Below, in pieces: positions 20,124 to 30,442 of a DNA stretch of 41,508 nucleotides. The notes under the pieces are model-generated. The model had not been told where the DNA came from. It made no database searches and saw only the letters and a program-made list of their open reading frames with translations. Position 1 is the first letter of the stretch; each line of letters begins with the position of its first letter. Source of the stretch: a virus; IMG/VR virus record IMGVR_UViG_3300049478_000022, positions 1-41,508 of that record, one strand, 5' to 3'. The translations under genes and the position numbers were made by a program.

Positions 20124-22436
20124 ATGTCAGACAAAATCATAAAAATGCTCGAACCCGGGGACATTGATGTCCGTGAGATAAACGAAAAGACGCGGACCAT
20201 CTGGCACCGGATCAGCAAAGAAGTCAAGGACCGGATGGGCGACATCGTACGGATCGACGGGATCGACACGAAGAATTTCCGCAAGAAGCCGACCGTGCTT
20301 TATGGTCACAATTATTCGGGCCTTGATCCCATTCCGGTTATCGGCAGCAATGTCGGTTTCCGCAAGGAAGGTAAGTCATATTATGCCGGGACCAGGTTCC
20401 TCAACCCCGAGGAAGAGAAATTTAGCGGCAAGTTAGCCGATCTGGTCAATGATGCCTGGGTACTCAGCAGGATGAAGCTCATCGGCTGGTCCATCGGGTT
20501 TATCCCCAAAGAGACTGTTCCGCTAAAGGAAAAAGTGGCCGATACAGATGAAGAAGTGACGACCGGCCTGGACTTCAAAAAGTCGGAGCTCCTTGAGTAT
20601 TCGCTTGTCCTCATCCCGGCGAACCAGGAGGCCGTGAACGATGCCATTTCCAAGGGCCTCGTCAGCAAGAACGTCGTCTCTGAGTTTCAGGAGCCGCCGT
20701 TGCTCGTGGATGACCTGACGGCAGACTTGGATGATGACTATGCCCATGACGATGCGGGCTTTGTCACCAAACCATCCAAGGAAAATCATGTTTGTGCTGT
20801 CGGCAAGGGGGATTATGACAAGTATCGGAGCGGTAGCCGTGAACACGATGGAAAGACATACACCATCCGTTATGGCAGGAAGCGCGGCACGGACGAGTGG
20901 GAAGACTACGAATATTTCTATTCCGTCGATACCTGGACCGCCGCCGAAGCCCGCTCCCACTGCAAATCGCACGATGGCACATTCGAGGCGGCGACGGGCG
21001 AGGATACCATGCCTTGCCCATGCTCGGCAACGATAGATGATACGGGTACTTCCCTACCCGTTGACATAAAAAAGGCCGTCCTTGGCCCCGAGATACCCCA
21101 AGGCGGCCCCGTTATCAAGGTGTCTCCCAAATCTACAGGAGGAAAAACAAGAATGAACGCTCGATTGTTGGAACTCATTCAGAAGCTGAAGAAAGGCGAA
21201 GCGCTCACAGCAGAAGAGGATGCCGAGTTCGATACGCTGTTTGCGGAAAGCAAAGACCAGAAGGCCGCGCCTGTCCGCAAGCTCGAATTTTCCGATGCCA
21301 AGAGTGACATCCGCCCGATCAGCTCGATCATGGAGACCCCCTCCCGGCTGCTGACGCCGGTTGAGCAGGAGCTCCAAAGCCGCATGGACGACATCTATAT
21401 TGTGTCGTCCCTCTTGCGGACCAACCCCCGAAACCTCAAGATGTGGACCGACTTGAGGGAAGGCACATCTGCCCTGCGCAAGGCGATGGACACCGCCACG
21501 GCAACGGAAGGTCTGGAATGGGTGCCCACGACCCTTTCCGCGCAACTCATCGAGAAGTACCGGCTCGAAGCGCGAGTGGCCGTGCTGTTTGACGAAATCG
21601 CCATGCCCCGGAACCCCTACGAGCTCCCGACTGACCTCGGCGACATGACCTACTATCTCATGCCCGAGTCGCTCACCCCTGAACCGAGCAAGACCCCTAC
21701 TACCAAACTCACCACCGGGAAAAAGACCCTGACCTCGAAAAAACTCCGCGCCCGTTCCATCTGGTCTGAGGAGCTGGATGCTAATTCCATTATCCCCATT
21801 CTGCCCAGGGTCAAGGACACTATCGCCAAGTCCGCCGCACTTGCGGTTGAGGACGTCATTATCAACGGCGATACGACCGCCCCACACCAGGACGCCGACG
21901 TCACGGATTCCAGGGACCACCGGAAAGCGTGGAAGGGCTTGCGCAAACTCGTCGTGGCCGGCGCTTTCAACGATCTCGGCACTTTCGACAAGGACACCAC
22001 GCGCGGTTTGCTCGTGGATATGGGCAAGTACGGGCTTATCCCGAGCGAGGTCGTCTGGATCGCCGGGGTCGTGAGCTATAACAAGCTCCGCGGCCTGACC
22101 GAGCTGCTCACCGTCGACAAGTACGGTCCGGCAGCCACGATTCTCACGGGCGAGGTCGGCAGGCTTTACGGCTCGCCGGTCATCGTGTCGGAGAAGATCC
22201 GGGAAAACCTCAACGCCACGGGTGTCTATGACGGCAGCGTCGTGGACAACACCCTGCTCTTGGCCGTCAACCGGCGCGCCTGGATTCTCGGGAACGACGG
22301 CGGGTGGAAACTCACCGTGGACTTCGACAACGACGTCGATCAGTACGTGCTCAATGTCCGGTTCCGCAAGGACTTCATCTGCATCTACCCCGCCACGGAT
22401 GCCTGTGTCGCGGTCGGCTACAACGTGACCGTCTAA
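20124..22436 (+). CDS. Prohead protease - linker - major capsid protein fusion (HK97 type)
   Basis: The 770-residue frame joins three parts. Residues 1-190 are an S78-type prohead protease (YGHNYSG with H62, IGWSIGF with S123, LLEYSLVLIPANQEA). Residues 220-300 form a Cys/His domain (NHVC, WTAAEARSHCKSHDGTFEAA, CPC) that is often seen at protease C-termini. From residue 344 (internal ATG 21153) comes a helical delta/scaffold segment, then the HK97-fold capsid protein (PTTLSAQLIEKYRLEARVAV to CVAVGYNVTV). The fusion could supply protease and scaffold within one chain that cleaves itself. The internal start would give most of the capsid as a separate 427-residue protein. Confidence 0.9.
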   Translation: MSDKIIKMLEPGDIDVREINEKTRTIWHRISKEVKDRMGDIVRIDGIDTKNFRKKPTVLYGHNYSGLDPIPVIGSNVGFRKEGKSYYAGTRFLNPEEEKFSGKLADLVNDAWVLSRMKLIGWSIGFIPKETVPLKEKVADTDEEVTTGLDFKKSELLEYSLVLIPANQEAVNDAISKGLVSKNVVSEFQEPPLLVDDLTADLDDDYAHDDAGFVTKPSKENHVCAVGKGDYDKYRSGSREHDGKTYTIRYGRKRGTDEWEDYEYFYSVDTWTAAEARSHCKSHDGTFEAATGEDTMPCPCSATIDDTGTSLPVDIKKAVLGPEIPQGGPVIKVSPKSTGGKTRMNARLLELIQKLKKGEALTAEEDAEFDTLFAESKDQKAAPVRKLEFSDAKSDIRPISSIMETPSRLLTPVEQELQSRMDDIYIVSSLLRTNPRNLKMWTDLREGTSALRKAMDTATATEGLEWVPTTLSAQLIEKYRLEARVAVLFDEIAMPRNPYELPTDLGDMTYYLMPESLTPEPSKTPTTKLTTGKKTLTSKKLRARSIWSEELDANSIIPILPRVKDTIAKSAALAVEDVIINGDTTAPHQDADVTDSRDHRKAWKGLRKLVVAGAFNDLGTFDKDTTRGLLVDMGKYGLIPSEVVWIAGVVSYNKLRGLTELLTVDKYGPAATILTGEVGRLYGSPVIVSEKIRENLNATGVYDGSVVDNTLLLAVNRRAWILGNDGGWKLTVDFDNDVDQYVLNVRFRKDFICIYPATDACVAVGYNVTV
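21068..21108 (+). promoter_or_regulatory. Slippery-like heptamer plus hairpin in the protease-capsid linker
   Basis: A AAA AAG (21068-21074) lies in the reading frame required for -1 slippage (codons ATA AAA AAG). Directly after, GGCCG (21074-21078) pairs with CGGCC (21104-21108) and CCTTGG (21080-21085) with CCAAGG (21098-21103), an 11-bp stem with one bulged T. A -1 shift would end the protein at a TGA about 77 codons later, giving protease without capsid. Function as a frameshift site is speculative. Confidence 0.35.
21137..21155 (+). promoter_or_regulatory. Internal ribosome binding site and start for the capsid part
   Basis: AGGAGG (21137-21142) stands ten bases before ATG 21153, in frame within the fusion. 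The encoded start (MNARLLELIQKLKKGEALTA) looks like the natural N-terminus of a capsid delta domain. It would yield a separate capsid protein of 427 residues in excess of the fusion, as lambda does with its C/Nu3 genes. Confidence 0.6.
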
Positions 22437-23174: not shown

Positions 23175-23765
23175 ATGCCTTACTCAACAGCTGGTAAAAA
23201 CTTAATGCTGAACGCCCTCATTGCCACAAACCCGACTACGCCGATAACGCATGCCGGGTTGTACGATGAGGCGGCGGCGATCACGAGCGTGACGGGTGTT
23301 GCCGCGACGGACTTGCTAACCAAGGCAGGACACGGCCTGGTGAACGGCGATCTCGTCGTTTTGCGCTCGCTCACCGGAGGTGCAGGGCTGGTAGTGGAAT
23401 ATCCCTACTATATTGTAGGCGTGAGCGGGAATGACTTCCAGCTCTCCCTGCTTTCCGGGGGTTCGGCCTTTGACTTCACGACCGACATCAGTTCTGTCAG
23501 TGTCGTCAAGCTGGTCGAGCTTTCCGGCGGATCGCCTGCCTATGCGCGGAAATCCATCACGTTCAGCGCGGCGGTTGGCGGGAGCATCGACAGCTCTAAC
23601 CAGCCGGTATTCGATTGCGCGGCTGGCACGGTGGTCAACTATGTCGGGCTTTTCAGTGCATCCACCGCGGGCACGTTGCTTGGGATCGACCCCGTGACGG
23701 AAGAAACTTTCGGAGCGCAGGGGACTTACACGCTGACCGACGCAGATTGTGACCTGAACGCATAA
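23175..23765 (+). CDS. Beta-rich minor virion protein, 196 residues
   Basis: AGAGGAGAAGATA precedes ATG 23175. The protein begins YSTAGKNLMLNALIATN and contains SGGSPAYARKSITFSAAVGG and VVNYVGLFSASTAGTLLGI. These match a family of phage minor structural proteins whose core reads SGGSPAYAR... GT-V-VGL. Residues 35-100 (VTGVAATDLLTKAGHGLVNG, VVEYPYYIVGVSGNDFQL) look like an inserted beta domain. It is probably a head fibre base or virion surface protein. Confidence 0.65.
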   Translation: MPYSTAGKNLMLNALIATNPTTPITHAGLYDEAAAITSVTGVAATDLLTKAGHGLVNGDLVVLRSLTGGAGLVVEYPYYIVGVSGNDFQLSLLSGGSAFDFTTDISSVSVVKLVELSGGSPAYARKSITFSAAVGGSIDSSNQPVFDCAAGTVVNYVGLFSASTAGTLLGIDPVTEETFGAQGTYTLTDADCDLNA

Positions 23766-24094: not shown

Positions 24095-26110
24095 ATGGCT
24101 ACAACATACTACGTTAGCAAGGTTGACGGCAACGACACCTATGACGGTCTCTATGATACTTGGCAGGGCGGGCTGAACGGCCCCCTGCTGACTATGACCC
24201 ATGCTGTAGTCCATGCGTCGGGGTTGGGGGATATGGTCTATTTCAGGCGTGGCGGAAGCTGGAGGGAAACCCTCACCGTGCCAAGGAGCGGCGATGCCAC
24301 CCATCAGCAAATTTGGGGCGCCTATGGCTCTGGCGATTTGCCGAAAATCTATGGCTCTGACCTTGTGACGGCGTGGGATCAAACTGACATTCCTGGGGAA
24401 TGGGGCGATTTATCTGCCGAATCCTTTGAGGGTGGGGGATATGAAGAAAGTTGGACTGAACAACTTAGCGGAGATTCAATCATAGATGAAGATTGCGTAG
24501 AAGTTACTCCCCCCACCGGAGGTGACAATGAGACATTAAAAATCCAGACAGTTACAGTAGGCGATAGCTGTAGAGTTTATAGAAATATTGGCTCAGATAC
24601 CCCCCTTACATATACAAGGTGTTCTTTCAAAGTAGCGGCGGAGGCAATAGGCGCGGTTTCATCCCAAACCGTTTTGTATACCAACAATGCCGCCTATAAC
24701 GTTCCTTTTTCAATACAGTTATATAAAGACGGCTCCAGCAATAGATATTTTAGATTACAGTTATATAACAACGGGGCCAACGCCTATTACCTTTCGGACA
24801 ACACTGTTAATTTGGATCAATGGTATTGCATCCTTGTTTATTATGATGACACCAGCCATCTTTGGTCATGGGAGATTGATGATGTCGAACAGGATTCTGG
24901 TTCGATAACGGGGACACATCGGACGGGGCCAAAATATTGGTATCTTGGGCAACTCGGGACTGTTAGTGCTACCATGACCGTTTATTGCGATCTTTTTGCA
25001 ATTTCTACTACTGGCGTTGTTGAAGACCCAATTCCCCTTCCAGCAAATTGCTGGAAGGCGGCCCACCCCTGCAATCCTTGGATGGTTTGGTTTAATGAGG
25101 GCGGAACCATTACGGAAGGAACAAGGGAAACGGTTATGGCCAATGTTAATGCAAAATATGATTTTTTTTGGCACACCCTGGGTTATCTTATAACATATTC
25201 GACAACCGACCCGGATTCTGCTTATACGTGGATAGAAGGCGGGAATCGGCATACCGGAATTAACTGCGGCACGTCATACGTTACCATCAAAAATTTCGAA
25301 CTTCTCTACACGGCTCATGGGATTCAACTTACTGGCACTTATAATCTTATAACCGAAAACTATTTTCACGATTTTCTGATGTTTTATATCGGGGCCAACA
25401 GCTTCGGCTGCACTGGAGTAGCAGTTAAAAATACTGACAATGAGATTTCCTACAATACATTTAGAGACCTCGTCCAGCCTTGCACGGATTATTCGCACTT
25501 TGGTAGGTGTGTAGATCAGTTTGGTCAGACATCCAGGACCTATGTTCATCATAATTTTGCCTTTAACGTCTTGGGATTCATGGAAGCGGGCGCGGCGTCG
25601 GGGAACCCGACAATAAGCGATATTAGATATGAATACAATATGAGTCTTGAGTGTGGTCGATTTACCGGAATCAATAATAACGTCGGAGATTATCAGGTTA
25701 CTCCAGATAACTTCAAAGTATTGAACAATACTATCGTAGCTACTTCTGCCTGCACAATTCCAACAACTCCAGTAAACAAGAAATTTTGTGTCATAGCTTT
25801 TGATACAACGGGTTCGTCGGGACAATATTATTTCCGCAATAATATTGTCTCTACTGATGGGTTTAACCGCCTTGCCTCCGGATGGCTAACTTTCGACCAC
25901 GACCACAACTGCTTTTATATATTGAATCCTACTGGCGACGGATTTAATATCGCCGTCGAAGACCCCGACCGTAGAACAAATCCCCTGTTTGTCAATTATG
26001 GTGGGACAACCCCCGAGGACTATAAGCTGGCCTCCAATTCTCCCTGCATCAACGCGGGCGTGGACGTTGGCCTGACTGAGGATTATTTCGGGAATAAGGT
26101 TCCTCAATAA
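24095..26110 (+). CDS. Beta-helix surface protein with lectin-like insert
   Basis: The 671-residue protein starts TTYYVSKVDGNDTYDG, and GLGDMVYFRRGGSWRET follows, both usual at the N-terminus of right-handed beta-helix (pectate-lyase-like) proteins. Residues about 105-311 look like a LamG/jelly-roll insert (SCRVYRNIGSDTPLTYTRCSF, YRLQLYNNGAN region, WYCILVYYDD). The beta-helix resumes from about 330 (YVTIKNFELLYTAHGIQLTG, NLITENYFHDF, YFRNNIVSTDGF). It ends INAGVDVGLTEDYFGNKVPQ, just where a PDIGAYEY-type cap is normal, but lacks that cap. The gene is visibly more AT-rich than its neighbours between 24440 and 25900, which suggests a foreign source. A polysaccharide-binding or degrading head fibre is likely. 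Confidence 0.7.
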   Translation: MATTYYVSKVDGNDTYDGLYDTWQGGLNGPLLTMTHAVVHASGLGDMVYFRRGGSWRETLTVPRSGDATHQQIWGAYGSGDLPKIYGSDLVTAWDQTDIPGEWGDLSAESFEGGGYEESWTEQLSGDSIIDEDCVEVTPPTGGDNETLKIQTVTVGDSCRVYRNIGSDTPLTYTRCSFKVAAEAIGAVSSQTVLYTNNAAYNVPFSIQLYKDGSSNRYFRLQLYNNGANAYYLSDNTVNLDQWYCILVYYDDTSHLWSWEIDDVEQDSGSITGTHRTGPKYWYLGQLGTVSATMTVYCDLFAISTTGVVEDPIPLPANCWKAAHPCNPWMVWFNEGGTITEGTRETVMANVNAKYDFFWHTLGYLITYSTTDPDSAYTWIEGGNRHTGINCGTSYVTIKNFELLYTAHGIQLTGTYNLITENYFHDFLMFYIGANSFGCTGVAVKNTDNEISYNTFRDLVQPCTDYSHFGRCVDQFGQTSRTYVHHNFAFNVLGFMEAGAASGNPTISDIRYEYNMSLECGRFTGINNNVGDYQVTPDNFKVLNNTIVATSACTIPTTPVNKKFCVIAFDTTGSSGQYYFRNNIVSTDGFNRLASGWLTFDHDHNCFYILNPTGDGFNIAVEDPDRRTNPLFVNYGGTTPEDYKLASNSPCINAGVDVGLTEDYFGNKVPQ

Positions 26111-26140: not shown

Positions 26141-29100
26141 ATGGCCCTAAACCTTGAAGTCCAACTGCACCTGACAGATAAGTCTGTTAACTCGGGAACC
26201 GCCATTGCAGACCGTATAAGTACGCAGATCAATCTGAATGATGCGGATTACGACGGGGCTACTTATTATTTCGAGGTTGTAGCCGCAAATATCGATACCG
26301 CGGATAAGATAGTTTACCTGCGGTCCGGAACGACTGATTACGCCAGCGTAACTATCCCAGCGGGGACAACTGCCTACCTTAGGGTCAGGTCAACGAGCTT
26401 TACCCCGGCTTCTGGCAACGCGGTTTACTTCGCCCGACTTGCGGGAACGACGAGTAATTATCAACTCGTTGTATACGCGGCAAAAATAATCATCGTCCAG
26501 ACGAATGCCACAAAAACTCGCATCCAGATTCCGTTGATCTTTAATGCTGCCGCCGGTGGAGCCGACACCTATATTGATACCACCACATCAATAACCTATG
26601 TACAAACCACCCCACTTTATTATCCTATTTGGCTGCTTACCCAATCAAATTTTGCCACAATAGCCGCCACGAATCCATATACTTTCGAGGCCCGATTAAA
26701 ATCGACCCAGGCAGCAGCAATCGCCTATGCAAGCCTGTTTAATGCGACGGACAATGCCCAGATAACCGAATCTGAAGTGACTGTAACCGGGACGACGGGA
26801 ACTCTTGTAACCAATGATTTCGCAAGCGACTCGGCTTTCCACGATGGCGACGAATATGAGGTCAGGATAAAATCAAGTGCCGTGACTCGAACTTGTTCGA
26901 TAGCTTCTGCCCGACTCTATATCCGCCTTGAATCCCTATCCAAGACAGAGGTTTATTTTGTTAACGGAAGCACTCATTCGGGGACAGCATCGGGCGCACC
27001 CCGAGGCCAAAGAACCCTATGGACTCCCGGCAATTTTACCGGAACGCCAACTGTCTATTCTCAAGTGACTGGTTTTTGTACCGACAACGCCGAAGTAGAA
27101 TTTGTGAGGGATTGCGGGACAAATGATAGCGGAACCAGCGATGTCGGGAATGTATCTGGTTCTGGCATTAACTTTAATAGCGGAACAAAGGCGAGAAAGC
27201 GGACTGGGTCTCTTTCTTTGACGAGTGGAAATAGATTCTGTATTTACACCACCGCCACCACGGGTACTCAAGACCTTTCCGGGGAATTTCTGTTAATTAA
27301 GGTTGAATACACGAGCGAACCACATTCCGGTTCTGCTGTTGTTTCTGGAAATGGCTCTACTTCTGGGGAGGTTCAAAAGGGCGGATTAGGTGCGGCCTTA
27401 GCGTCTGCAGGGGGGACACTTTTGGCTCTTGGGTTTGCCGCATTTCTTGGCCTTTCCTCTATTCTCGGCGGGGGCAATCCAGTTGCGGCGGGGCAAAAGG
27501 CAACCTCGATGGAGGCTGTCGTTTCCGGCGGGGGTTCGGTAACTGCTGTCGGAGAAAAGTACATTGAACAGCACTCGGGTACGGCGGCGATCTCCGGCGG
27601 GGGAACCCTGGCTTCTACGGGGATAAAATGGGTGCCCAGTCCCCTTATCCCAGACATCGGAGCGCATGAGTACCCAGGATACATTGCACTACCAGACATC
27701 GGTGCCCATGAATACACGGGCGGATTTAGTTCGGGGGCAGCAATCTCTGGTGGTGGGGTGGTATCAACTACAGGGGATAAAGCCGGTCAATCATCCCCCG
27801 TCATTTCAGGCGGTGGGACAATAACTGCGACCGGAGAAAAGTCTGCCGAACTACACTCTGGAACAGCCGCCATATCCGGCGGCGGAGCGATTACGACCGA
27901 GGACGCAAAGGGCGGCCAGAATCTTGTCTCTATTTCCGGCGGTGGAACGGTCTCATCCGAACAGGAAAAGAACGCTCAGGATATTGGCATCATTTCCGGG
28001 AATGGAGTGCTATTATCCACGGGCATAAAGAGTGGCCTGGATTCCGCGCTGGTTTCTGCCGATGGAACAGTAGTCTCAACCGGGGAAAAGGCCGCTTCTG
28101 ACCTTGCGGTTATATCAGGCGGGGGTAATATCGTCGCTGTCGGGACAGCCGCCGAACCCCATTCGGGTACTGGAGTCATTTCCGGCGGGGGGTCTCAGAT
28201 TGCACTCGGCCAAAAGGCAGCCGCCTCTATCGGTTCCGTCCCCGGCGGGGGAATCCTAATAGCGGTTGGTCAAAAGGCTGCATATACCCATCACATTGGC
28301 CTACCGGATATCGGCGCACACGAATATCAAGGTGCTTTAGGAACCGTTGTTTCCGGTGGTGGATCAATAATAGCAACCGGCGAGAAGGCTCTCGTTGAAG
28401 AACATTCCGGCTCGGCAATCATATCCGGTGGGGGGTCTCAGGTTGCGGTCGGGGAAAAGGGCGGCCGGGAATCAGGCTTAATCTCTGCCGCTGGGGCCGT
28501 TGCCTCGACGGGTCAAAAGTCGGCCTCGGATTTGGCGGCCATATCCGGGGGCGGAAACATTACTGCCTCCGGAACGATGGCCGAGTCCCATTCCGGCGTT
28601 GCCGTTATTTCAAGCACAGGTTCGATCACGGGATTGGGGACAAAATCAGTTTCCGGGTCGGGGGTTATCCCCGGCGGCGGGACCGTCGCGGCATCCGGGG
28701 TCAAGGACAGGCCCACAGCCGCATTGATCTCTGGTGGCGGATCGGCGATTGCGGAAGGGAAAAAGGGCGCATCCGATTCTGGAGTAATTTCTGGCGGCGG
28801 CACCATCGTTGCCGTCGGCGTATCGACCGAATCGCATTTTGGATCTGCTGCCATTTCTGGTGATGGAGCCATTTCGGGCATCGGCCTCAAGGCCGGGTTG
28901 GGGACAGCGGCCATCTCCGGTAATGGAACCCTTGCGGTAGTCGGCACGGGGGCCACTCCTGGAACCGCATTGATCTCGGGCGGAGGAAATATAACTGCCT
29001 CCATCAGCAAGGATGGCCGGGATATAGCAACCATATCGGGTGGCGGCATTCTCGTTGGGATCGGCGAGAAGTGGGCCCCTGGTGATTCGGATATTTCCGG

Positions 29101-29332
29101 CGGCGGCGACCTTGCGGTAATCGTCACTGAGGATAAATATGGTCAAGCGGCCATTTCTGGTGGAGGAACACTATCCAGCATAGGAGTGAATAGTGAAAAA
29201 TCACCCCTACCCGGACACGTCTTCCATGTCCATCCCCGCAAGCGCATATTCGATGTCCGGGCAAGGCGTCATGTCCAGCCGGTTGAGCACGGGGACCGGA
29301 TATTCGATGTTTACGGCAGGAGAAGTCAATGA
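26141..29332 (+). CDS. Large ISGGG-repeat surface protein
   Basis: The 1063-residue product has three parts. Residues 1-390 are beta-rich and look like two jelly-roll-type domains (LNLEVQLHLTDKSVNS, YFEVVAANIDTADKIVYLR, EVYFVNGSTHSGTASGAPRG). Residues about 392-1020 contain about 28 copies of a roughly 20-residue unit with consensus AxISGGGxhxAxGxK. Three PDIGAHEY motifs lie within this array. The C-terminus has two copies of an RIFDV motif (KRIFDVRARRH and DRIFDVYGRR). I know of no named family for the repeat; Gly-rich turns with alternating hydrophobics suggest a beta-solenoid or fibrous shaft. It lies among head and connector genes and may be a head fibre. Confidence 0.65.
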   Translation: MALNLEVQLHLTDKSVNSGTAIADRISTQINLNDADYDGATYYFEVVAANIDTADKIVYLRSGTTDYASVTIPAGTTAYLRVRSTSFTPASGNAVYFARLAGTTSNYQLVVYAAKIIIVQTNATKTRIQIPLIFNAAAGGADTYIDTTTSITYVQTTPLYYPIWLLTQSNFATIAATNPYTFEARLKSTQAAAIAYASLFNATDNAQITESEVTVTGTTGTLVTNDFASDSAFHDGDEYEVRIKSSAVTRTCSIASARLYIRLESLSKTEVYFVNGSTHSGTASGAPRGQRTLWTPGNFTGTPTVYSQVTGFCTDNAEVEFVRDCGTNDSGTSDVGNVSGSGINFNSGTKARKRTGSLSLTSGNRFCIYTTATTGTQDLSGEFLLIKVEYTSEPHSGSAVVSGNGSTSGEVQKGGLGAALASAGGTLLALGFAAFLGLSSILGGGNPVAAGQKATSMEAVVSGGGSVTAVGEKYIEQHSGTAAISGGGTLASTGIKWVPSPLIPDIGAHEYPGYIALPDIGAHEYTGGFSSGAAISGGGVVSTTGDKAGQSSPVISGGGTITATGEKSAELHSGTAAISGGGAITTEDAKGGQNLVSISGGGTVSSEQEKNAQDIGIISGNGVLLSTGIKSGLDSALVSADGTVVSTGEKAASDLAVISGGGNIVAVGTAAEPHSGTGVISGGGSQIALGQKAAASIGSVPGGGILIAVGQKAAYTHHIGLPDIGAHEYQGALGTVVSGGGSIIATGEKALVEEHSGSAIISGGGSQVAVGEKGGRESGLISAAGAVASTGQKSASDLAAISGGGNITASGTMAESHSGVAVISSTGSITGLGTKSVSGSGVIPGGGTVAASGVKDRPTAALISGGGSAIAEGKKGASDSGVISGGGTIVAVGVSTESHFGSAAISGDGAISGIGLKAGLGTAAISGNGTLAVVGTGATPGTALISGGGNITASISKDGRDIATISGGGILVGIGEKWAPGDSDISGGGDLAVIVTEDKYGQAAISGGGTLSSIGVNSEKSPLPGHVFHVHPRKRIFDVRARRHVQPVEHGDRIFDVYGRRSQ
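27316..29195 (+). repeat. Array of about 28 degenerate 60-bp coding repeats
   Basis: The repeated unit is about 60 bases and encodes the ISGGG repeat. Many copies share ATTTCCGG(C/T)GG-type cores. PDIGAHEY-coding segments interrupt the array at 27650-27673, 27692-27715 and 28304-28327. Copies have diverged at synonymous and non-synonymous sites, so the array is old or recombined rather than freshly duplicated. Confidence 0.75.
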
Positions 29333-29616
29333 TTGGCGTTGTCGAAAAAAGCACAACGGATGAACTCAAGGTCGGCCTTCGTTATTGGCCGCCCGATCTC
29401 ATAACCGGGGAGACGATCACGGCGGTCGAAGCGACTGTTACGCCCACGGGACTTACTCTCTCTGGCACGGCGACGATCGGCGGGGCCGAAGTATACCAAA
29501 AGGTAACGGGGGGCACGGCTGGAACGGAATATCTCCTGCAATTCAAGGTTACAACCTCCCGTCCCGAAATCTTCAAGAATCCGGAGATCGATGCGATCTT
29601 GGTGAAGGTGGTGTGA
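29329..29616 (+). CDS. Ig-like virion protein, 95 residues
   Basis: ATG 29329 overlaps the previous stop. The product contains ITAVEATVTPTGLTLSGTATIGG and VTGGTAGTEYLLQFKVTTS, the alternating-strand pattern of bacterial Ig-like domains common in small phage structural proteins. It lies between the repeat protein and the connector. A decoration role is likely, but partner unknown. Confidence 0.6.
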   Translation: MIGVVEKSTTDELKVGLRYWPPDLITGETITAVEATVTPTGLTLSGTATIGGAEVYQKVTGGTAGTEYLLQFKVTTSRPEIFKNPEIDAILVKVV

Positions 29617-29617
29617 A

Positions 29618-30442
29618 ATGTCACTGAATGCGAACGCCCTGACGACGCTTGTAAAGGCCAAGAATCTCCTCCAGATTCCCGACACAACTTATGATGTGAT
29701 ACTGGAGCTTCTCATCAACGCCATCTCCACGCTCTTCGACCGCAGCACCAGCCGGAATCTGAAATATGCTGAATATCCAACGATCTATCTTGATGGGAAT
29801 GGTGAGAAGGCGATATCCCTTCCAGATTTCCCCGTCGCCTCGATTGGCTCCGTCACTGAAGATGACATTGTGCTCACAGAAGGCACGACGTCGGATTATC
29901 TTCTCTACTCCTATGACAACGACGCCTATCTCTACAAGATGAGCGGGGTTTGGACGACGGCACGCAAGGGAATAAAACTTACCACGTTCAAGGCTGGGTT
30001 TAAGCTCGAGAATACGGTCTGTTTCGATTCCGGATCAACGGAGCCCGCTGTGGGGGTGACGCTCGTTGGCGCAACCTCTGCTGCAACCGGCGTCATCACC
30101 AAGGTCATTGTTTCAGGCGGGGTCTGGGGCAGTGATTCCGCCCGGGGAGAGGTCGAATTCGCTTCTATAACAGGCGCGTTCGTGGACAACGAGAATATCA
30201 ACATCTCCGGTGGAGCATCCAATATTATGAGCGTAGACCAACCCACAACGCCGGTCCTCATTCCCGCAGACTTGGAGCTCGTCTGCCTCAAGCAGGTCGC
30301 CTGGGAGTGGAAGAAATACAAGGGCGTGCAGTGGGGGGAGAGCTCTCACTCGTTTGAGGCGGGCTCCATCTCAATCGAAATCGATAACCTCCTTCCCGAC
30401 GTGAAGGAAGTCCTGGGTCGATATCGGAAGATTACTCGATGA
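29618..30442 (+). CDS. Head-tail connector (HK97 gp6-like) with an inserted beta domain
   Basis: Residues 1-50 (LTTLVKAKNLLQIPDTTYDVILELLINAISTLFDRSTSRN) and 213-274 (LIPADLELVCLKQVAWEWKKYKG to IEIDNLLPDVKEVLGRYRK) match gp6-like head-tail connectors, ring proteins under the portal. Residues about 131-212 are an insertion with the pattern of virion surface domains (GATSAATGVITKVIVSGGVW, RGEVEFASITGAFVDNENI). Connectors of this family are usually near 100-200 residues, so the insertion explains the 274-residue length. It probably projects at the neck. Confidence 0.75.
   Translation: MSLNANALTTLVKAKNLLQIPDTTYDVILELLINAISTLFDRSTSRNLKYAEYPTIYLDGNGEKAISLPDFPVASIGSVTEDDIVLTEGTTSDYLLYSYDNDAYLYKMSGVWTTARKGIKLTTFKAGFKLENTVCFDSGSTEPAVGVTLVGATSAATGVITKVIVSGGVWGSDSARGEVEFASITGAFVDNENINISGGASNIMSVDQPTTPVLIPADLELVCLKQVAWEWKKYKGVQWGESSHSFEAGSISIEIDNLLPDVKEVLGRYRKITR

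What the first reader, a model, noticed from the sequence alone, without database searches (positions are those of the whole stretch)
27316..29195. Unnamed ISGGG repeat array in a large virion protein
About 28 degenerate units of about 20 residues (consensus AxISGGGxhxAxGxK) fill residues 392-1020 of the 1063-residue product. The constant Gly-Gly-Gly turn, alternating small hydrophobics and Lys suggest a beta-solenoid or repeat shaft. I recognise no named family for it. A long, evolvable repeat on a phage head or neck could vary host contact or length by recombination between units.
Basis: partly seen in the sequence, partly recalled or inferred. Interest (0 to 1): 0.75.

Follow-up and report, generated by a model that had tools for sequence, protein, structure and literature searches.

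The report
Modular phage fibre with repeat shaft
A tailed phage known only from metagenomes makes a fibre-like protein whose middle is 28 copies of an undescribed 20-residue "ISGGG" repeat, probably stacked into a stiff beta-sheet rod; relatives carry 9 to 16 copies in the same gene slot, so the rod looks like an exchangeable, length-variable part of a phage particle.

Summary
ORF 26141-29332 (1063 aa) holds 28 units of period 20 at residues 398-1021. No Pfam, PHROGs or NCBIfam family covers them, and no isolate phage in INPHARED encodes a comparable relative. I found nine IMG/VR relatives (9-16 units in those read through) plus a more distant one. All eight loci with upstream sequence (window included) carry a GP4-fibre-I-like (Gp80) gene close upstream; the window and L062 have a GP4-fibre-tail-adaptor-like (Gp77) gene next downstream. 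AlphaFold2 (moderate confidence) gives two strands per unit; best structural matches are beta-solenoids (curli CsgA, TibA/Ag43). Those 9-residue repeats recur, next to Gp77-like genes, on proteins with other shafts (AEAFG, SAGVAT and others), in mirror image in Gordonia phages. I read the protein as a modular virion fibre: variable globular head, 20-residue solenoid shaft, 9-residue docking tail. Recent recombination between units is not seen at DNA level, but copy number varies between relatives. New repeat family of a known kind, in a modular slot for which I found no description.

The parts
26141..29332 (+). repeat-shaft fibre protein, 1063 aa
   Evidence: open frame; nine homologues plus one distant relative in IMG/VR
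26141..27310 (+). N-terminal region, residues 1-390; the equivalent region differs in type among relatives and is nearly absent in L058
   Evidence: all-against-all BLASTP of N-terminal regions: at least three unrelated types; no hit for the window's own; L058 begins at the start module
27317..27559 (+). conserved start module ExHSGSAxISGNGSxxGxxxKGGKGSALxSGxGxLLAxGxAGMLGxASISGGG (residues 393-473)
   Evidence: 8 proteins align over 81 columns without gaps except one residue, 15 invariant columns
27392..27475 (+). hydrophobic second unit and junction, AALASAGGTLLALGFAAFLGLSSILGGG (residues 418-445)
   Evidence: most hydrophobic 19-residue stretch in 9 of 10 ISGGG-family proteins (mean KD 1.8-2.3), second best by 0.05 in L063; keeps the 20-residue period
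27332..29203 (+). array of 28 ISGGG units, period 20 aa (residues 398-1021)
27650..27715 (+). two PDIGAHEY inserts between units (residues 504-511 and 518-525)
   Evidence: the same peptide ends the beta-helix protein of relative L078 (...RHAPDIGAHENQ)
28304..28327 (+). third PDIGAHEY insert (residues 722-729)
29219..29326 (+). C-terminal nonapeptide repeats VFHVHPRKR/IFDVRARRH/VQPVEHGDR/IFDVYGRRS (residues 1027-1062), proposed docking tail
   Evidence: best lag 18 z 3.9; lag 9 z 2.0; similarity to the L079 C-terminus 0/1000 shuffles, BLASTP E 7e-7
29329..29616 (+). Gp77-like protein (Pfam: podophage GP4 fibre-tail adaptor)
   Evidence: PF23148 E 1.1e-10; PDB 8jou_D E 5.8e-5
24095..26110 (+). 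beta-helix (pectate-lyase-like) protein directly upstream; its C-terminus stops where relatives have PDIGAHE
   Evidence: NCBIfam choice_anch_Q weak match at residues 634-668, E 0.006; gene order
23175..23765 (+). Gp80-like protein (Pfam: podophage GP4 fibre I)
   Evidence: PF23140 E 2.9e-8, phrog_240 E 8e-11
29618..30442 (+). gp6-like head-tail connector marking the 3' border of the fibre cassette
   Evidence: phrog_442 head-tail adaptor E 4e-15

Best explanation
The protein is a modular fibre or spike of a siphovirus-like virion. From N to C it has (1) a variable globular region that most likely faces outward, (2) a rigid shaft made of 28 stacked 20-residue beta-arches (strand, GGG turn, strand, short loop), i.e. 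a beta-solenoid about 13 nm long if the rise is about 0.48 nm per unit, with an extra-hydrophobic second rung that most likely serves as a packing or oligomer interface, and (3) a C-terminal tail of 9-residue hxVxPxxR repeats that docks on the Gp77-like adaptor encoded by the next gene. The shaft is an exchangeable cassette: in the same slot of related phages the tail motif is kept while the shaft changes to other 20-residue (Gordonia: 24-residue) repeats, and its length changes by whole units. Shown: the repeats, the period, the relatives, the gene context, the shared C-terminal motif. Inferred: the solenoid fold (moderate-confidence models), virion location, orientation, docking on the adaptor, function of the hydrophobic rung.
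For: Period of 20 in the ISGGG arrays and also in the AEAFG (L079), SAGVAT (L084) and GIGATAYTG (L067) arrays, z about 10 each. AF2 gives two strands per unit in both models. Best structural matches are beta-solenoids: CsgA 8c50_A Z 21.4 (rmsd 8.0, 214 aligned; next Z 13) for L059, TibA 4q1q_A Z 17.7 (rmsd 4.8, 268 aligned) and Ag43 for the window array. Gene order between capsid and head-tail connector, with a Gp80-like fibre gene upstream in 8 of 8 loci with flank (six above the Pfam cut-off, L058 below it at E 9e-4, L065 by likeness only) and a Gp77-like adaptor downstream in the window, L062 and, weakly, L059. Same slot in capsid-relative L079: a minor tail protein family (phrog_13352 E 2e-31) with a homologous C-terminal tail. 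Nonapeptide tails in isolates: Microcystis Mae-JY04, Sphingobium Lacusarx and Mycobacterium Bernal13 at the C-terminus; Gordonia Phendrix and Moosehead at the N-terminus just after Gp77. Within the ISGGG family the nonapeptide tail occurs with Gp77 (3/3) and not without it (0/6), Fisher p 0.012.
Against: pLDDT is 55 and 68; Foldseek E-values are all above 0.05, so two-sided (curli-like) and three-sided (TibA-like) cross-sections are not separated and a trimeric fold was not testable. Nothing shows the protein in a virion. The lag-9 signal of the window's own tail alone is modest (p 0.03) and the Gp77 association rests on few, related loci; L059's Gp77 match is weak (E 0.01, below cut-off). Five isolates have Gp77 without any nonapeptide neighbour (Aegeus, Shagrat, Jabberwocky, prophi86-1, the Bradyrhizobium prophage), and in Bernal13 the tail is at the end away from Gp77.
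Confidence: 0.62

Rival explanations
1. The array is a flexible, small-residue-rich linker or low-complexity spacer without a fixed fold, kept only for length.
For: 23% Gly, 14% Ser, 13% Ala; AF2 confidence moderate to low.
Against: Exact 20-residue spacing kept across diverged proteins, short insertions confined to one place in the unit, alternating hydrophobic pattern, conserved I, G, G, K positions, and two strands per unit in both models.
Confidence: 0.12
2. The hydrophobic second unit is a membrane-inserting segment, so the protein takes part in envelope penetration during infection rather than being only a shaft.
For: Mean Kyte-Doolittle 1.8-2.3 over 19 residues, flanked by KGGKG, in all ISGGG-family proteins.
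Against: It keeps the 20-residue period and the GxG core, and AF2 gives it the same two strands as its neighbours; the more distant L067 lacks it.
Confidence: 0.15
3. The array is a functional-amyloid-like or self-associating surface (as in curli or Ag43) that makes virions clump or stick to biofilm matrix.
For: Nearest structural matches are CsgA, TibA and Ag43.
Against: No curlin sequence motif and no curlin Pfam hit; matches rest on moderate models; no sorting machinery expected in a phage.
Confidence: 0.08

Closest known systems
Curli subunit CsgA (8c50) and curlin repeats
   Same: About 20-23 residue strand-arc-strand units stacked as a solenoid; number of units varies widely between homologues (PMC10192328); closest fold match of the L059 array.
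   Different: No N-$-Psi-$-Psi-$-Q motif: one N.....Q and no QX10Q in 624 residues; GGG turn and Lys instead; phage gene cassette, no csg operon.
Self-associating autotransporters TibA / Ag43 (4q1q, 4kh3)
   Same: Best VIA matches of the window's own array, Z about 17-18; glycine-rich repeats of about 19-20 residues (own knowledge).
   Different: No autotransporter domain found by Pfam; no sequence relation detected.
phrog_13352 minor tail proteins (mycobacteriophage Marvin gp88 and kin)
   Same: A member fills the same slot in capsid-relative L079, with a 20-residue repeat and the same C-terminal nonapeptide tail.
   Different: Different repeat sequence (SGIASAEAFGT).
Microcystis phage Mae-JY04 WWT39678.1
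   Same: Same gene order Gp80-like, shaft protein, Gp77-like; 20-residue array; nonapeptide tail.
   Different: Repeat is of the type SAGVATVSGAGRTIAAGAG, no ISGGG core and no hydrophobic second unit; annotated as hypothetical.
Podophage GP4 fibre I (gp80) and fibre-tail adaptor (gp77)
   Same: Neighbouring genes of the window belong to these Pfam families.
   Different: The repeat protein itself matches neither.

Membership tests
ISGGG-array family defined here | 20-residue ISGGG units in tandem | tested here: met
   28 units, lag 20 z 11.9
ISGGG-array family defined here | start module with ExHSG and hydrophobic second unit | tested here: met
Curlin repeat (CsgA) | N-$-Psi-$-Psi-$-Q motifs / QX10Q kernel | tested here: not met
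   1 N.....Q, 0 QX10Q in the array; no curlin Pfam hit at E up to 1
Curlin repeat (CsgA) | strand-arc-strand beta-solenoid | tested here: inconclusive
   Z 21.4 with rmsd 8.0 on a pLDDT 68 model of relative L059
Self-associating autotransporter passenger (TibA/Ag43) | beta-solenoid passenger fold | tested here: inconclusive
   Z about 17-18 on a pLDDT 55 model; Foldseek E 0.8 or worse
Self-associating autotransporter passenger (TibA/Ag43) | translocator domain and secretion signal | not tested
   No dedicated search; Pfam scan of the protein shows no such domain
DUF2807 / GIN (toast-rack) domain | significant profile match | tested here: inconclusive
   4opw_A E 0.045 with the array profile; no Pfam hit at E up to 1. 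That 4opw is a DUF2807 entry is my own knowledge
Slot protein next to Gp77 adaptor (architecture class proposed here) | repeat shaft plus nonapeptide hxVxPxxR tail on the side facing a PF23148 gene | tested here: met
Virion protein | present in purified particles | not testable with these tools
   metagenomic contig, no proteomics

The most novel reading that the evidence does not exclude
Many unrelated tailed phages share an undescribed plug-in fibre system: a small Gp77-type adaptor, a docking peptide made of 9-residue hxVxPxxR repeats that can sit at either end of the fibre protein (mostly the end facing the adaptor gene), and an exchangeable solenoid shaft of fixed 20-residue (or 24-residue) pitch that sets how far a swappable globular head stands off the particle.
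Probability: 0.4. Interest if true: 0.62.

Novelty: new variant of a known kind. Interest (0 to 1): 0.47.

Why it matters
If right, it names a repeat family and a docking motif that annotation now leaves as 'hypothetical' or 'minor tail protein', gives a sequence rule for spotting length-variable phage fibres from gene order, and offers a small two-part test (docking peptide plus adaptor) of how phages swap receptor-binding parts. The 20-residue pitch shared by arrays without clear sequence relation suggests the geometry, not the sequence, is selected.

Tried and rejected
Direct searches with the whole protein found nothing (INPHARED; viral contigs); in IMG/VR the conserved part is the 81-residue start module, and searching with that succeeded. 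A first tandem DNA pattern had the wrong spacing and found nothing; the corrected one gave two true relatives among 24 viral stretches and none confirmed among 32 genome stretches. SEG masking as the cause of the INPHARED miss was tested and rejected for the window protein: with SEG on and that database size it still finds all seven relatives at E 2.3e-4 or better; for the L059 and L067 array queries masking does make the miss uninformative. Prophage copies: 0 of 1571 genomes in four phyla, with 6 of 6 virus records as positive control, so no host assignment. A phase-shifted alignment for AF2 was dropped because MAFFT re-registered the fragments. Foldseek against PDB and BFVD gave nothing significant; BFVD lists 'Curlin associated' phage proteins at E about 0.3 only. 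A Gp77 scan of viral contigs returned only loci already held. GP4's record was not found under the accession I tried and the Marvin genome paper is not held under the DOI I tried. The idea that every Gp77 gene has a nonapeptide neighbour was rejected. Paper searches for this repeat or for such repeats in phage minor tail proteins found nothing on the point.

Full report
OBSERVATION. The finding is real. The gene is 26141-29332 on the + strand, 1063 aa. Residues 398-1021 contain 28 units; of 27 spacings nineteen are exactly 20 residues, six carry an extra 2-4 residues (ExHSG), and two carry longer inserts with the peptide PDIGAHEY. Autocorrelation peaks at lag 20 (z 11.9) and lag 40, above every shuffle. 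Units average 37% aa and 47% nt identity; the closest pair is 67% nt, within what random synonymous recoding of the same amino acids gives (mean maximum 65%, 95th percentile 70%), so no unit appears to have been duplicated recently. A block of units at 615-697 resembles 758-840 more than expected (p 0.01-0.02 by permutation of unit order), a weak sign of an old block duplication.

FAMILY. Pfam, PHROGs and NCBIfam do not recognise the array. INPHARED holds no comparable relative, and one search shows that this search would have found relatives as close as those in IMG/VR. A DNA pattern for two consecutive units and then the conserved 81-residue start module found nine IMG/VR relatives (L058 to L066; L012 and L008 are the same contigs as L062 and L063) and the divergent L067. 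Unit numbers are 28 in the window, 13 in L058, 10 in L059, 11 in L060, about 15 in L061, 9 in L062, 14 in L063, 16 in L064 (leaving out low-scoring calls outside the arrays; L060 and L061 are cut at the 5' end). No copy was found in 1571 genomes of four phyla.

ANATOMY. (a) The N-terminal region is variable: L062, L064, L066 and the second domain of L065 share one type, L061 and L065 another, L063 a third that is a separate upstream gene in L058; the window's 390 residues match none. (b) The start module is the most conserved part. Its second unit is strongly hydrophobic (window LLALGFAAFLGLSSILGGG) in all ISGGG members while keeping the 20-residue period. (c) Three PDIGAHEY peptides sit between units. 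The same peptide ends the beta-helix protein of capsid-relative L078, whereas the beta-helix gene just upstream in the window ends before it, in a weak choice-of-anchor-Q match. The simplest reading is past fusion and recombination between the two neighbouring genes (inference). (d) The C-terminus is VFHVHPRKR/IFDVRARRH/VQPVEHGDR/IFDVYGRRS, a 9-residue repeat.

CONTEXT. The cassette lies between the capsid gene (20124-22436) and a head-tail connector (29618-30442). Upstream is a Gp80-like gene (Pfam: podophage GP4 fibre I) and next downstream a Gp77-like gene (Pfam: GP4 fibre-tail adaptor; PDB 8jou_D E 6e-5). A Gp80-like gene is found, with 0-2 genes between, upstream of the repeat protein in all eight loci with flank, window included; Pfam recognises six above its cut-off and L058 below it at E 9e-4, while L065 is recognised only by its likeness to the window's. 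The architecture of GP4's tail fibres is published (Zheng et al. 2023 J Mol Biol, cited in PMC11784390), but I could not read that paper.

THE SLOT. In L079, whose capsid protein is about 50% identical to the window's, the gene before Gp77 encodes a different 20-residue repeat (SGIASAEAFGT) of the phrog_13352 minor tail family, with a C-terminal tail similar to the window's (0 of 1000 shuffles; E 7e-7). In the isolated Microcystis phage Mae-JY04 the same gene order holds a third 20-residue repeat and again nonapeptides. Sphingobium phage Lacusarx and Mycobacterium phage Bernal13 have C-terminal nonapeptide tails; in Gordonia phages Phendrix and Moosehead the order is reversed, with Gp77 first, then nonapeptides at the N-terminus, a 24-residue shaft and a C-terminal globular domain. 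In Lacusarx the tail faces Gp77, as in the window; in Bernal13 the shaft protein follows Gp77 and its tail is at the far end, so 'faces the adaptor' has one exception among those read. Within the ISGGG family the nonapeptide tail is present where Gp77 is (window, L062, L059) and absent where it is not (L058, L060, L061, L063, L064, L066): p 0.012, few loci, not corrected for relatedness; L060 is borderline at lag 9 (p 0.017) and L066 changes frame. Five other isolates have Gp77 without such a neighbour.

FOLD. AF2 on the window array (eight-row alignment) has pLDDT 55; on the L059 array (16 rows) 68. Both are all-beta with two strands around each GxG. Foldseek finds nothing significant, but its PDB list is almost all beta-solenoids. 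VIA-align 2 places L059 nearest curli CsgA (Z 21.4, rmsd 8.0, 214 aligned; next Z 13) and the window array nearest TibA and Ag43 (Z 17-18). I conclude 'beta-solenoid, cross-section unresolved'. It is not a curlin: the curlin motif is missing (motif as defined in PMC10192328).

MECHANISM. Most likely the array is a stiff rod of about 28 rungs (about 13 nm at 0.48 nm per rung, inferred), holding the N-terminal region away from the particle, with the C-terminal tail docking on the Gp77-like adaptor. The basis for the orientation is that the N-terminal part is variable or missing while the C-terminal motif is kept across different shafts. The hydrophobic second rung is probably an interface; membrane insertion is a less likely alternative. 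Varying the number of rungs changes reach without touching either end. None of these functional steps has been tested.

VERDICT. The array is a new repeat family of a known kind (beta-solenoid phage fibre shaft). The more interesting part is the modular slot around it.

Noticed in passing
window 24095-26110 and 27650-28327: The beta-helix gene ends before the usual PDIGAHE tail peptide, while three copies of that peptide sit inside the next gene's repeat array; suggests past fusion or recombination between neighbouring fibre genes.
   Followed up: partly
L066 8001-8840: The array of this Mu-like phage changes reading frame partway; array-like sequence goes on in another frame and ends in exact nonapeptide repeats ITAEALAPS encoded by a 27-base repeat.
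   Followed up: no
L067 2-1375: Distant relative with repeat GIGATAYTGAKGAKVAGLAS, period 20, no hydrophobic second unit.
   Followed up: partly
L091 4283-6352 and L097 4276-5784 (Gordonia phages Phendrix, Moosehead): Mirror-image fibre proteins: nonapeptide repeats at the N-terminus next to Gp77, then a 24-residue repeat shaft, then a C-terminal globular domain.
   Followed up: partly
window 20124-22436: Head maturation protease and major capsid protein appear fused in one 770-aa frame.
   Followed up: no
L083 6060-13218: Viral contig with a distantly related capsid carries glycosyltransferase-, radical-SAM-, sugar-epimerase- and sulfatase-like genes (by eye, not searched).
   Followed up: no
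JN116825.1 25177-25428 (Rhodococcus phage REQ1): A Gp77-like match lies under a feature annotated primase/polymerase; probably a misannotation.
   Followed up: no
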